Source of the DNA: an uncultured Synechococcaceae cyanobacterium
Lineage (GTDB): Bacteria > Cyanobacteriota > Cyanobacteriia > PCC-6307 > Cyanobiaceae
Direction of reading: 5' to 3'
DNA: 64,000 bases
Assembly (NCBI GenBank): GCA_902634405.1
Contig: CACPJY010000003.1
Span: 62,001-126,000, forward strand
The notes beneath the pieces are model-generated. The model did no database searches. It had not been told where the DNA came from and was given only the letters and a program-made list of their open reading frames with translations. The position numbers were made by a program, and so were the translations under genes. Within the stretch, counting starts at the first letter, position 1. Every line of letters begins with the position of its first letter. This document shows, piece by piece, positions 13,782 to 23,528 of the stretch.

Positions 13782-13979
13782 GAGCAAGTTAAAAATTGAG
13801 TTACATTAAGAACTGTAACGTATTTTATTGCGAAGTGTGAAGAGGCTCGTCGTTATATGGTGGATATCTTTATACGAGAGGCGCTTATAAGCATCTCTTA
13901 AGTCAAAAGTTCATTTCCCGACTCCAAGGCTATTGAATACCCTCTTGCAAAAAAAGAGAAAATAGTCAATAATTATTTT

Positions 13980-13993
13980 GTAGCAATCACTAC
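13980..13993 (+). promoter_or_regulatory. GTAN8TAC site (NtcA-box-like) at the start of a riboswitch transcript
   Basis: The sequence gtagcaatcactac fits the NtcA consensus GTA-N8-TAC exactly and is also a 4-bp inverted repeat GTAG-N6-CTAC. A -10-like AT stretch (taattatt) lies just before it, so it would fall at or just after the transcription start, a repressing position for NtcA. The alternative is a small 5' hairpin in the RNA. An equivalent site sits at 19568-19581 in the same position. Confidence 0.6.
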
Positions 13994-13994
13994 A

Positions 13995-14062
13995 GAAAAC
14001 GTTCACCTAGCGAAATCGCAAGGCGCAGTTCGACTCAGGCCAAGGAACGGGGACCTGAGCCA
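13995..14062 (+). ncRNA. glutamine-II riboswitch (Downstream-peptide RNA motif)
   Basis: The order aaaacgttcacc, hairpin cctagcg-aaat-cgcaagg, gcgcag, then ctcagg-ccaaggaacgggga-cctgag matches the cyanobacterial glnA/Downstream-peptide RNA family. This binds L-glutamine, and in Synechocystis the related aptamer upstream of gifB activates expression when glutamine is high. The stems and the conserved CGTTCA and AAGGAACGGGG elements are also present in the copy at 19582-19650, with compensating changes in the stems. It ends about 15 bases before the ATG of the DUF4278 gene, so control is probably at ribosome access (inference). Confidence 0.85.
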
Positions 14063-14076
14063 ACTAGGAGAACCAA

Positions 14077-14178
14077 ATGACTCTTATCTACCGTGGACAT
14101 AAATATGTCCAAAACAAGGAGGCTGAAAAAAAGCCAGAGATACTACTGACCTATAGAGGAAAGCAGTACCAACGTTAA
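14077..14178 (+). CDS. 33-aa DUF4278 peptide (PirA-like family)
   Basis: A very short ORF: MTLIYRGHKYVQNKEAEKKP then EILLTYRGKQYQR. It contains two copies of the DUF4278 repeat core (L-x-YRG-x-x-Y). The Synechocystis PII-interacting regulator PirA belongs, as I recall, to this family and modulates arginine synthesis through PII; a similar nitrogen role is inferred here. The start is 14 bases behind the glutamine riboswitch with an AGGAG site (ctaggagaaccaaATG). It is followed at once by a strong terminator, making a self-contained unit. Confidence 0.85.
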   Translation: MTLIYRGHKYVQNKEAEKKPEILLTYRGKQYQR

Positions 14179-14182
14179 AAGC

Positions 14183-14213
14183 AAAAAAAGCCCTTTATCA
14201 GGGCTTTTTTTTT
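14183..14213 (+). terminator. intrinsic terminator of the riboswitch-DUF4278 unit
   Basis: An A-run, stem agccct / agggct and a T-run of nine, beginning about 5 bases past the stop. It also faces the convergent end of the glycerate kinase gene. Confidence 0.9.
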
Positions 14214-17817: not shown

Positions 17818-17885
17818 TTCTATCAGCAGCTGTTCATTACACGATCTTGCCAGATCTCAACTGTTTCTGTTCTTCTTATCAACAA

Positions 17886-19106
17886 ATGGACTTTCAACAG
17901 GGATTAATTACAACCATTCACGATTATGGTGTTTGCCCTGATTCCTTGGATGAGCTCAGATCAGGTCTGCACCAAAGGCCTACAGCACTTGTTGTCCCAT
18001 GCCTTTTTGAAGAGTTCAAAAGACCCGCTTTATTGCTAACGAAAGATGTTCTTAAAGAACTTGAAGGGCTTGGTCAATTAGTCATCGCACTATCCGCCAA
18101 GTCATCAGAAGAAGTTCTTCAAGCAAAAACATTCTTTGAGGGAATGCCATTCCCAGTGCATGTTCAATGGACCAACAGTCCAGCTGTTAATGAACTTCTT
18201 AAAGGACAAGAAAAAAAGAATGGCCTTGAATTACTAGTGCCCCCTGGTAAAGGATGGGCGGTTTGGCAAGGCGTTGGCATAGCAACGAAATCAGCTGAGG
18301 TAATTGCTCTTTTTGATGCTGATATAAAGACCTTTAAGCCCTCTTACCCAACAAGGATGCTTCTACCACTATTAGATCCCTCTCATGGAATCTCCTATGT
18401 AAAAGCTTTTTATAGTCGACTCTCATTACAAAATAATTCTTTGCAGGGAAGAGCGACCAGGCTTTTTGTAGGGCCATTACTTACCAGCCTGGGAAAGATC
18501 TTTGGAGAGAGTCCCTTCCTAAACTATTTACAAGCATTTAGATATCCACTGGCTGGAGAATTTGCTTTCACTAAATCTTTAGCAATGAATCTAAGAATTC
18601 CTTGTGATTGGGGTTTGGAAATAGGACTACTTTCTGAGGTTTATAGACATGTAAGAACTAGCAGAATCGCACAAGTTGATCTTGGCATATTTGACCATAA
18701 ACATAAAGATATAGGTGCTTCAGCAGAAGAAGGCCTGCAAAGAATGTGTTCGGAAATATTATCTACCGTATTAAGAGGTTTAATGGAGCATGAATCTCAA
18801 GGACTATCTCAAACCCAAATATCATCTTTAGAAGTATTATACAGCCGTGTTGGAGAAGATAGAGTCAAGCAATTTGGGCTTGATTCTGTAATGAATCAAC
18901 TTCCATATAATCGCCATATTGAAGAACTCTCTGTACAGAAATTTGCTAAATTAATTAAAACATCAACTCAAAAATTCTTAGATTACCCAATCACAAAGCA
19001 ACTTCCAGCTTGGTCTAGGGTTATTTCATGTGAAAATAATTTAAGAGACGAACTTGAAGCTGCCGGCAAAATCAGTACCCAGCAAGAAGAAAAACAAAAA
19101 ATTTAG
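17886..19106 (+). CDS. gpgS: glucosyl-3-phosphoglycerate synthase (GT81)
   Basis: GpgS transfers glucose from a nucleotide sugar to 3-phosphoglycerate, the first step of glucosylglycerate synthesis. I chose the ATG at 17886 (MDFQQGLITTIHDYG); the track TTG at 17847 adds 13 unlikely residues. Key features are ALVVPCLFEEFKRPAL (~34-49), the metal-binding ALFDADIKTF (~142), LLDPSHGISYVKAFYSR (~162) and PLAGEFAF (~221), the family's acceptor region. It is divergent from the catabolic GH13 gene across a very short promoter region, so synthesis and breakdown may be reciprocally controlled. Confidence 0.9.
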   Translation: MDFQQGLITTIHDYGVCPDSLDELRSGLHQRPTALVVPCLFEEFKRPALLLTKDVLKELEGLGQLVIALSAKSSEEVLQAKTFFEGMPFPVHVQWTNSPAVNELLKGQEKKNGLELLVPPGKGWAVWQGVGIATKSAEVIALFDADIKTFKPSYPTRMLLPLLDPSHGISYVKAFYSRLSLQNNSLQGRATRLFVGPLLTSLGKIFGESPFLNYLQAFRYPLAGEFAFTKSLAMNLRIPCDWGLEIGLLSEVYRHVRTSRIAQVDLGIFDHKHKDIGASAEEGLQRMCSEILSTVLRGLMEHESQGLSQTQISSLEVLYSRVGEDRVKQFGLDSVMNQLPYNRHIEELSVQKFAKLIKTSTQKFLDYPITKQLPAWSRVISCENNLRDELEAAGKISTQQEEKQKI

Positions 19107-19448: not shown

Positions 19449-19567
19449 TCAATTCTTTTAGAGTCCCAAAACAGCAAATAAGCTAAATTACCTATCCGAA
19501 AAGATAAAAATGTTCTTGTATTTGCCTTTATTGACGAAGCAATTGAAAACATGCTAGACAAAGGAAT

Positions 19568-19581
19568 GTAGTAACCGCTAC
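19568..19581 (+). promoter_or_regulatory. GTAN8TAC site (NtcA-box-like) at the second riboswitch
   Basis: The sequence gtagtaaccgctac fits GTA-N8-TAC exactly and again forms GTAG-N6-CTAC. A plausible promoter lies just upstream (ttgacg at 19531-19536, ctagac at 19554-19559, 17-base spacing), which would place the start of transcription at or within this site, consistent with repression by NtcA. Spacing to the aptamer's CGTTCA element matches the first copy within one base. Confidence 0.6.
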
Positions 19582-19650
19582 CAAAACGTTCACCTTGCTA
19601 ATAAGCAGGGCGCAGGTCGCACCAAGCCAAGGAACGGGGACTTGGGCATT
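19582..19650 (+). ncRNA. glutamine-II riboswitch (Downstream-peptide RNA motif), second copy
   Basis: The same architecture as at 13995: aaaacgttcacc, hairpin ccttgct-aat-aagcaggg, gcgcag, then ccaag-ccaaggaacgggga-cttgg. The second stem differs from copy 1 (ccaag/cttgg against ctcagg/cctgag), yet both strands pair, which is covariation supporting an RNA structure rather than a DNA site. It lies 14 bases before the next ATG. Confidence 0.85.
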
Positions 19651-19664
19651 CCGGAGTCGCAATT

Positions 19665-19838
19665 ATGTCTACACTCCTTTATAGAGGGCAAGACTATGTC
19701 CAACACAAAGAGGTCTCATCTACTAAGCAGTGCATAGAGCTGACCTATCGGCGAGAGCATTACAACACTTGCAGAGAGTCGAGCCAGCCAGTAGCTCAAA
19801 AACAGCTCGCCTATAGAGGGGTTCATTACACAAAGTGA
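19665..19838 (+). CDS. 57-aa DUF4278 protein with three repeats (PirA-like family)
   Basis: Not in the track. It reads MSTLLYRGQDYVQHKE, then IELTYRREHYNT, then KQLAYRGVHYTK: three copies of the L-x-YRG/R-x-x-Y repeat, against two in the 33-aa relative at 14077. A charged, Gln/Ser-rich linker joins repeats two and three. It is preceded by ccggag as ribosome binding site and followed by a long terminator hairpin. Role in nitrogen/PII signalling is inferred from the riboswitch and the PirA resemblance. Confidence 0.85.
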   Translation: MSTLLYRGQDYVQHKEVSSTKQCIELTYRREHYNTCRESSQPVAQKQLAYRGVHYTK

Positions 19839-19850
19839 GGCTTTAAATTC

Positions 19851-19900
19851 CTCAGACAAAAAAGGCTCTCTTACTAATTAGAGGGCCTTTTTTGTCTGAG
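19851..19900 (+). terminator. long intrinsic terminator of the second riboswitch unit
   Basis: The outer stem ctcagacaaaaaagg pairs with ccttttttgtctgag around an inner ctctc/gaggg hairpin, with T-runs. It is symmetrical, so it also serves the convergent gene at 19921. Confidence 0.9.
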
Positions 19901-21385: not shown

Positions 21386-21910
21386 CTATAAAATTCCAGG
21401 AATCTCACGCTTAAGTTGTTGAGCCCATTTCTCCAACCTTTCATCTGTCAAGTCAGATTCACTATCTTCATCTAGAGGGAGGCCACAAAATCTTTCTCCT
21501 ACAACACTTTTAGAATCCTCAAATGTATATCCAGACTTCTCTACATAGCCAACCATTGTTGCTCCTGCCTTTTGAAAGTAAGAATGTAATTCCTCCATTG
21601 CATCGCAGAAATTTTCAGTATAAGTAGACGAATCACCTAATCCAAAAATCGCAACTTTCTTACCGCTTAAAGAGAGTCCCCCAATATCTTCCAACATAGA
21701 ATCCCATGCTGTACCTGACCTTTCGGAGTCTGCTCCAGTATTCCAGGTAGGAATACCACAAACAATTGCATCCAAATCATTAAACTCACTTATATCTGGC
21801 AGATCAGCAAGGTCCTTAGGGGCATTTGCTGATTTAAGCAAATCATGAAGCCTATCGGCGATATCTTCTGTTTTGCCTGTTGTTGTGGCAAAGAAAATTC
21901 CTAAAGCCAT
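21386..21910 (-). CDS. isiB: flavodoxin
   Basis: Flavodoxin replaces ferredoxin as electron carrier from PSI under iron limitation. The 174-residue protein is a long-chain flavodoxin: FMN phosphate loop GIFFATTTGKTEDIADRL (~4-21), IPTWNTGADSERSGTAW with the Trp that stacks on FMN (~54-70), the FGLGDSSTYTENFCDAMEEL segment (~89-108) with its aromatic FMN partner, and a C-terminal acidic helix. It is transcribed away from an IsiA/PSI-type pcb gene, with about 560 bases between them that also hold a tiny membrane-protein ORF. This arrangement recalls the cyanobacterial isi locus. Confidence 0.95.
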   Translation of the reverse strand: MALGIFFATTTGKTEDIADRLHDLLKSANAPKDLADLPDISEFNDLDAIVCGIPTWNTGADSERSGTAWDSMLEDIGGLSLSGKKVAIFGLGDSSTYTENFCDAMEELHSYFQKAGATMVGYVEKSGYTFEDSKSVVGERFCGLPLDEDSESDLTDERLEKWAQQLKREIPGIL

Positions 21911-22472: not shown

Positions 22473-23528
22473 GTGCAGACTTACGGAAACCCTAACGTCA
22501 CATATGACTGGTACGCGGGTAATTCTGGTGTAACAAACCGCTCAGGTAAATTCATCGCAGCTCATGCAGCACATGCAGGGTTGATGATGTTCTGGGCTGG
22601 TGCATTCACACTTTTTGAATTAGCTCGTTATGACCCTTCATTGCCAATGGGCAATCAAGGCTTAATTTGCCTGCCTCATTTAGCAGGCCTGGGTATTGGT
22701 GGAATTGAAGGTGGTGTTATTACAGACCCTTATGGTTGCACCGTTATCGCTGTATTGCATCTAATTTTCTCAGGAGTATTAGGAGCTGGGGGTCTTCTCC
22801 ATTCATTGAAATTTGAAGGAGATCTTGCAAATGCCACTGGAAGACCCAAAAAGTTTGATTACGACTGGGATGATCCTGATCGTCTGACTTCGATCCTGGG
22901 ACATCATTTAATTTTCTTAGGCCTTGGTGCTATCCAATTCGTTGAATGGGCCAAGTATCACGGTATTTACGATGCCGCTCAGGGAATTGTTCGAACAGTT
23001 GAGCCAAATTTAAGTGCTGCAATGGTCTGGAATTATCAAGCTGATTTCCTATCCATTTCAAGCCTAGAAGATGTAATGGGAGGACATGGCATCCTTGCTT
23101 TTATTCTTATTAGCGGAGGAGCCTTCCACATAGCTACTAAACAATTTGGTGAGTACACCGAATTCAAAGGCAAAGGCTTGTTATCAGCCGAATCTGTTCT
23201 CTCATATTCACTAGCAGGAATTGGGTACATGGCTTTTATTGCAGCCTTCTGGTGCTCGATGAACACTACTGTTTACCCAACAGAGTTGTACGGTGAAGTC
23301 CTGAAAATCAATTTTGAATTTTTCCCTTACTTCACTGATACAGCGAATAACCTTCCTATAGATGTGCACACATCTCGCGCCTGGTTATCAAATGCTCATT
23401 TCTTCCTAGGATTCTTCTTCTTACAAGGCCATCTATGGCATGCATTAAGAGGAATGGGTTTTGACTTCAGAAGAGTAGGAAAGGCTTTCGAAAATTTTGA
23501 GAATGCCAAGATTACAGCAAATGACTAA
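22473..23528 (+). CDS. pcb: Pcb antenna protein, IsiA/PSI-associated type
   Basis: A 351-residue Pcb, clearly divergent from the other three in this window. It starts from GTG (MQTYGNPNVTYDWYAGNSGV), has MMFWAGAFTLFELARYDPSL, QGLICLPHLAGLGIGGIEGG with a short loop insertion, FILISGGAFHIATKQFGEYT, and ends GHLWHALRGMGFDFRRVGKA. Where the others read SIGIGFDETGAWTGAGV this has a GIEGG/DPYGCTV version, as in iron-stress IsiA. In SS120-type strains the iron-induced, PSI-associated Pcb is of this kind (pcbC); placement next to flavodoxin supports that role (inference). A strong terminator follows. Confidence 0.92.
   Translation: MQTYGNPNVTYDWYAGNSGVTNRSGKFIAAHAAHAGLMMFWAGAFTLFELARYDPSLPMGNQGLICLPHLAGLGIGGIEGGVITDPYGCTVIAVLHLIFSGVLGAGGLLHSLKFEGDLANATGRPKKFDYDWDDPDRLTSILGHHLIFLGLGAIQFVEWAKYHGIYDAAQGIVRTVEPNLSAAMVWNYQADFLSISSLEDVMGGHGILAFILISGGAFHIATKQFGEYTEFKGKGLLSAESVLSYSLAGIGYMAFIAAFWCSMNTTVYPTELYGEVLKINFEFFPYFTDTANNLPIDVHTSRAWLSNAHFFLGFFFLQGHLWHALRGMGFDFRRVGKAFENFENAKITAND

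What the first reader, a model, noticed from the sequence alone, without database searches (positions are those of the whole stretch)
19531..19900. Second copy of the riboswitch-DUF4278 unit with covarying stems and three repeats
The second unit repeats the arrangement exactly (promoter, GTAN8TAC, aptamer, ORF, terminator). The stem ccaag/cttgg replaces ctcagg/cctgag with pairing kept, which is good evidence for the RNA fold. The peptide has three YRG repeats instead of two, so the family changes by repeat number. The two units flank the glucosylglycerate cluster, which makes a nitrogen-free osmolyte used when nitrogen is scarce. That placement may be chance or may link nitrogen status to osmolyte choice.
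Basis: partly seen in the sequence, partly recalled or inferred. Interest (0 to 1): 0.8.

Follow-up and report, generated by a model that had tools for sequence, protein, structure and literature searches.

The report
Second glutamine-II riboswitch with DUF4278 peptide
A short gene for a 57-residue peptide sits behind an RNA switch that senses the amino acid glutamine and a probable nitrogen-regulator site; this arrangement is already known from marine picocyanobacteria, and its position next to osmolyte genes is not conserved in relatives.

Summary
Window 19584-19646 is a Glutamine-II riboswitch aptamer (RF01704, 62.4 bits), preceded by GTAGTAACCGCTAC (GTAN8TAC, 19568-19581), followed by a 57-aa DUF4278 ORF (19665-19838) and a strong terminator hairpin. 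Its sister at 13980-14211 scores 65.9 bits.

Corrections: the repeats are YRG, YRR, YRG, and this unit's -10 box is poor. The two peptides are not one gene changing repeat number: a 33-aa two-repeat class (Yfr6 type) and a 55-58-aa three-repeat class coexist in several other genomes.

The glucosylglycerate link is not supported. In 52 other genomes with both gpgS and the riboswitch, units near gpgS are no more frequent than chance (3 within 10 kb, 2.1 expected), and none repeats this arrangement.

The arrangement is published: type 2 glutamine riboswitch, DUF4278 and NtcA motif in Prochlorococcus. I add that GTAGCN4GCTAC lies within 6 nt of the aptamer in 77 of 93 units, about 6 nt after a TATAAT-like box, so on the likely start site, suggesting NtcA repression. 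New member of a known kind.

The parts
19568..19581 (+). GTAGTAACCGCTAC, candidate NtcA operator (GTAN8TAC), probably at about +1 to +14 of the transcript
   Evidence: Sequence; position and 5+5 palindrome conserved in 77 of 93 units
19584..19646 (+). Glutamine-II riboswitch aptamer, unit 2
   Evidence: RF01704 62.4 bits; covariation in 62 relatives
19653..19656 (+). GGAG, candidate Shine-Dalgarno sequence of unit 2
   Evidence: Sequence; predicted paired in the ligand-free fold, inference
19665..19838 (+). 57-aa DUF4278 peptide with repeats YRG, YRR, YRG
   Evidence: PF14105 42.4 bits, residues 3-55 of 57
19851..19900 (+). Rho-independent terminator hairpin of unit 2 (21 bp; A-run/T-run, could serve both strands)
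   Evidence: -35.0 kcal, z -9.25
13968..13973 (+). Candidate -10 AATAAT of unit 1, with TTGCAA 17 nt upstream
   Evidence: matches the conserved TATAAT-like position
13980..13993 (+). GTAGCAATCACTAC, candidate NtcA operator of unit 1
   Evidence: Sequence
13997..14059 (+). Glutamine-II riboswitch aptamer, unit 1
   Evidence: RF01704 65.9 bits
14077..14178 (+). 33-aa YRG-repeat peptide, Yfr6-type
   Evidence: DUF4278 26.7 bits; one of 29 units with peptides of 33-35 aa
14183..14211 (+). Terminator hairpin of unit 1
   Evidence: -14.1 kcal, z -4.3
17847..19106 (+). GpgS-like glucosyl-3-phosphoglycerate synthase (neighbour, not part of the unit)
   Evidence: NF040724 384.5 bits, below its cut-off of 700; conserved cluster with GpgP and a GH13 gene in relatives

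Best explanation
This is a one-gene nitrogen-surplus switch of marine picocyanobacteria. Under nitrogen starvation NtcA (active at high 2-oxoglutarate) sits on the operator at the transcription start and blocks it. When nitrogen is plentiful NtcA lets go, the short mRNA is made, and glutamine binds the Glutamine-II aptamer, stabilises its pseudoknot and frees the ribosome-binding site, so the small DUF4278 peptide is translated. The peptide then most likely dampens nitrogen assimilation by a protein contact, perhaps with glutamine synthetase, as its relative IF17 does. Its place beside gpgS is incidental. Shown here: the aptamer, its covarying fold, the DUF4278 match, the conserved box and its position, the lack of conserved synteny. 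Taken from the literature: glutamine binding and ON switching of such aptamers. Inferred: NtcA repression, the exact sequestering pairing, and the peptide's target.
For: Aptamer match and fold: 96.3% of cells paired in 62 aptamers, 13 of 18 pairs with changes on both sides, 0 of 500 shuffles as high; pseudoknot kept in 93 of 93 units as CGUUC/GAACG, CGUUG/CAACG or CGUCC/GGACG. DUF4278 match. Operator GTAGCN4GCTAC within 6 nt of the aptamer in 77 of 93 units, with a TATAAT-like box ending about 6 nt upstream of it. In MED4 Yfr6 the reading frame starts at nt 97 of the mapped transcript, which begins with G (PMC1242208); counted back from the ATG of unit 1 this is 13981, next to the first G of its box. 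Yfr6 RNA fell under nitrogen depletion. Literature: type 2 glutamine riboswitches are ON switches, are linked to DUF4278 genes, and PMM1846 has an NtcA motif (PMC6316151); likely translational (PMC6698751). Unit 1 folds with GUUC-CCUAG of the aptamer paired to CUAGG-GAAC over its ribosome-binding site.
Against: Across 86 units the folding model gives no rise in accessibility of the ribosome-binding site in the bound state (0.31 free, 0.31 bound). Pairing of the 5' strand with the platform exceeds dinucleotide shuffles only weakly (p 0.011) and shows no co-evolution against swapped platforms. Unit 2 has a poor -10. The 57-aa peptide has no room for the C-terminal part of IF17, and the review says the DUF4278 part of IF17 is dispensable for its function.
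Confidence: 0.8

Rival explanations
1. The two units belong functionally to the glucosylglycerate cluster and tie osmolyte choice to nitrogen status.
For: In this genome two of three Glutamine-II units lie within 6 kb of gpgS, which is unlikely if placed at random (0.0002, reckoned after the fact). Three other genomes have a unit within 6 kb of gpgS.
Against: Over 52 other genomes units within 10 kb of gpgS number 3 against 2.1 expected, and within 20 kb 7 against 4.1 (p 0.13). None of 33 Prochlorococcus genomes reached through named gpgS loci has a unit within 10 kb, and a pattern scan of 80 gpgS loci found none. The near cases differ: G049 a convergent three-repeat unit, G024 a 33-aa unit on the 3' side, G060 a unit on the opposite strand with a longer peptide. 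GTAN8TAC occurs nowhere within the gpg genes.
Confidence: 0.05
2. The GTAGCN4GCTAC element acts in the RNA as a 5' hairpin that protects the transcript or helps the aptamer fold, rather than as an NtcA site.
For: The arms are 5+5 palindromic, would be transcribed if the start is at the G, and fold as a small hairpin (-3.0 and -3.6 kcal). L162 has GCAGCAACCGCTGC, which keeps pairing but breaks the NtcA consensus.
Against: The innermost pair tolerates mismatch (C-A in 7 of 85, including unit 1), as expected for a protein site that reads mainly GTA and TAC. A DNA palindrome for a dimer explains the same symmetry. Both roles may coexist.
Confidence: 0.12
3. The transcript is a regulatory RNA (as first proposed for Yfr6) or part of a toxin-antitoxin pair with an antisense RNA, and the peptide is secondary.
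For: Yfr6 was first described as an RNA with a 33-aa frame, with antisense Yfr14 (PMC1242208, PMC2518516).
Against: The frames are conserved as two peptide classes, many with DUF4278 scores over threshold, across genera, which points to the protein as the product.
Confidence: 0.07

Closest known systems
Glutamine-II (type 2 glutamine, formerly downstream-peptide) riboswitch, RF01704
   Same: Sequence, pseudoknot, P1 and P3 stems, placement just before a short ORF in a marine picocyanobacterium
   Different: Nothing material; P3 bases differ with pairing kept
PMM1846 of Prochlorococcus MED4 (DUF4278, glutamine riboswitch, NtcA motif)
   Same: Same parts as reported in PMC6316151
   Different: The review only says that the motif is in the promoter region; I did not compare its sequence
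Yfr6 of Prochlorococcus MED4 and SS120
   Same: 33-aa frame behind the same 5' element; resembles unit 1 in transcript length, peptide size and probable start at G
   Different: Unit 2 encodes the longer three-repeat class
Glutamine synthetase inactivating factor IF17 (gifB)
   Same: DUF4278 N-terminal part; glutamine riboswitch and NtcA control
   Different: 57 aa against 149 aa; lacks the C-terminal part; gifB uses the type 1 aptamer

Membership tests
Glutamine-II riboswitch (RF01704) | Covariance model score above gathering | tested here: met
   62.4 and 65.9 bits, cut-off 33
Glutamine-II riboswitch (RF01704) | Pseudoknot between the 5' strand and the P3 loop, with P1 and P3 | tested here: met
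Glutamine-II riboswitch (RF01704) | Binds L-glutamine and switches expression on | not testable with these tools
   Shown for relatives in PMC6316151 and PMC6698751
DUF4278 (PF14105) | HMM score above gathering | tested here: met
   42.4 bits for unit 2; 26.7 bits for unit 1 in the six-frame search; cut-off 25.3
NtcA regulon | GTAN8TAC at a conserved promoter position | tested here: met
   Conserved site and spacing in 77 of 93 units
NtcA regulon | NtcA binding and nitrogen-dependent expression | not testable with these tools
   Yfr6 RNA reduced under nitrogen depletion in MED4 (PMC1242208)
Glutamine synthetase inactivating factor IF17 | C-terminal inhibitory part beyond DUF4278 | tested here: not met
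   DUF4278 match covers residues 3-55 of 57 and no other Pfam family matches; size of IF17 from PMC7760959
Unit linked to the glucosylglycerate cluster | Conserved synteny with gpgS | tested here: not met

The most novel reading that the evidence does not exclude
The three-repeat DUF4278 peptides are the missing small-protein brakes on glutamine synthetase, or on another nitrogen enzyme, in marine picocyanobacteria, held shut twice by the same signal axis: NtcA on the start site and a glutamine ON switch in the leader.
Probability: 0.3. Interest if true: 0.55.

Novelty: new member of a known kind. Interest (0 to 1): 0.25.

Why it matters
It confirms a published regulatory module in another picocyanobacterium and removes a tempting but unsupported link to osmolyte genes. 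The position of the conserved palindrome on the likely start site makes a clear prediction, NtcA as repressor. The target of these widespread small peptides is still open and could be tested directly.

Tried and rejected
1) Synteny with gpgS: rejected. 2) Clustering of units with one another: 6 pairs within 10 kb against 2.8 expected, p 0.07, not convincing. 3) A general anti-ribosome-binding-site pairing: only weak support, no co-evolution; a first test against single-base shuffles looked strong (p 2e-8) but shrank to p 0.011 with dinucleotide shuffles. 4) AlphaFold of the 57-aa peptide alone: mean pLDDT 56, not used. 5) The original riboswitch paper (10.1093/nar/gky709) is not held, so its content is cited through reviews.

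Full report
What is there. Unit 2 consists of GTAGTAACCGCTAC (19568-19581), a Glutamine-II aptamer (19584-19646, RF01704, 62.4 bits), a candidate ribosome-binding GGAG (19653-19656), a 57-codon frame (19665-19838, DUF4278, 42.4 bits) and a 21-bp terminator hairpin (19851-19900, z -9.25). Unit 1 has the same order at 13980-14211, with a 65.9-bit aptamer and a 33-aa frame. Between them lie a kinase-like gene, a phosphatase over the cut-off of an NCBIfam mannosyl-3-phosphoglycerate phosphatase model, a GH13 sucrose-phosphorylase-like gene and a GpgS-like synthase. The GpgS match is below its model's cut-off, but the same four-gene order recurs around relatives. The genome is a 1.56-Mb, 78% complete assembly with three Glutamine-II aptamers and three DUF4278 matches.

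Is it more than chance. The aptamer E-values leave no doubt. In 62 aptamers from related genomes 96.3% of cells pair, 13 of 18 pairs have changes on both sides, and no shuffle of 500 and no slid register comes near. The pseudoknot is kept in all 93 units with three different base compositions. By itself the GTAN8TAC pattern is worthless in this window (6 found, 7.9 expected). What counts is its place: 77 of 93 units have it ending 0-6 nt before the aptamer, usually as GTAGCN4GCTAC, with a TATAAT-like box at -12 to -7 from its first base.

What follows from the position. With a -10 ending about 6 nt before the box, transcription should start at or near the G of GTA. The published Yfr6 transcript starts with G and its 33-aa frame starts at nt 97 (PMC1242208); counted back from the ATG of unit 1 this is 13981, and its box starts at 13980. 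A regulator bound over the start site should repress. NtcA represses gifA and gifB in Synechocystis (PMC7760959), and Yfr6 falls under nitrogen depletion in MED4. This fits a product made only when nitrogen is ample. It remains an inference: no start site of this organism is mapped, and in unit 2 the -10 region is poor.

Peptide classes. Of the 92 related units with a usable leader, 29 encode peptides of 33-35 aa and 50 encode peptides of 54-63 aa. Where three YR motifs are found the middle one is mostly YRR (34 of 47). Several genomes carry both classes (for example G010, G049, G051). So the two window peptides belong to two classes that coexist in other genomes, not to a recent change of repeat number. 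Unit 2 belongs to a cysteine-bearing subgroup (CIELTYRREHYNTC) with 11 relatives in the set.

The osmolyte link. I compared positions of aptamers and gpgS in 25 relatives and 27 further Prochlorococcus genomes with at least one aptamer (contig numbers were matched to accession suffixes, which held in the cases that could be checked). Within 10 kb there are 3 units against 2.1 expected, within 20 kb 7 against 4.1 (p 0.13). The three near cases differ from the window and from each other in side, strand or peptide class. Many of these assemblies are fragmentary, which lowers both counts somewhat.

Expression platform. For unit 1 the minimum-energy fold pairs GUUC-CCUAG of the aptamer with CUAGG-GAAC over the ribosome-binding site, which would exclude the pseudoknot: a plain ON-switch scheme. 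For unit 2 the 3' strand of P3 covers GGAG instead. Over all units the evidence for one shared sequestering pairing is weak, so the translational mechanism rests on the literature.

Known or new. The combination of type 2 glutamine riboswitch, DUF4278 peptide and NtcA motif in marine picocyanobacteria, with the riboswitch in multiple copies, is published (PMC6316151; also PMC2864571 for the motif). The window adds a member. The regular placement of the palindrome is a small refinement that I did not find stated in the papers I could read, but the primary paper was not available.

Noticed in passing
window 22866-23037 (- strand): Rfam IsrR match (57.9 bits, cut-off 52) antisense to a pcb/isiA-type chlorophyll-binding gene at 22473-23528, near a flavodoxin-like frame (21386-21910). 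IsrR lies antisense to coding sequence, so the match may only reflect the conserved protein.
   Followed up: no
L003:1501-1860 (G000:C10:37246): A third, weak Glutamine-II aptamer (33.5 bits) with GTATCCGTTGCTAC upstream precedes a 59-aa frame without YRG repeats (MNTLPLIRSHIKRANRIHKAQL...); relatives such as L199 and L208 combine a similar start (MNVLxxI) with YRG repeats.
   Followed up: partly
L180, L189: Glutamine-II aptamers in front of about 105-aa proteins without DUF4278 but with a probable membrane segment (AGFLGAFIVGSLGVQL), so the regulon may be wider than DUF4278.
   Followed up: no
L191, L193, L197, L200: A variant aptamer class with pseudoknot CGUCC/GGACG before a 33-aa peptide MVNMYFNGKSFVYC...LTYRG.
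   Followed up: partly
L005 and L153 (G000:C10:9755-9907): A 136-aa DUF4278 protein in the same genome with a non-DUF4278 C-terminal half; no Glutamine-II aptamer was found near it. It could be compared with IF17.
   Followed up: no
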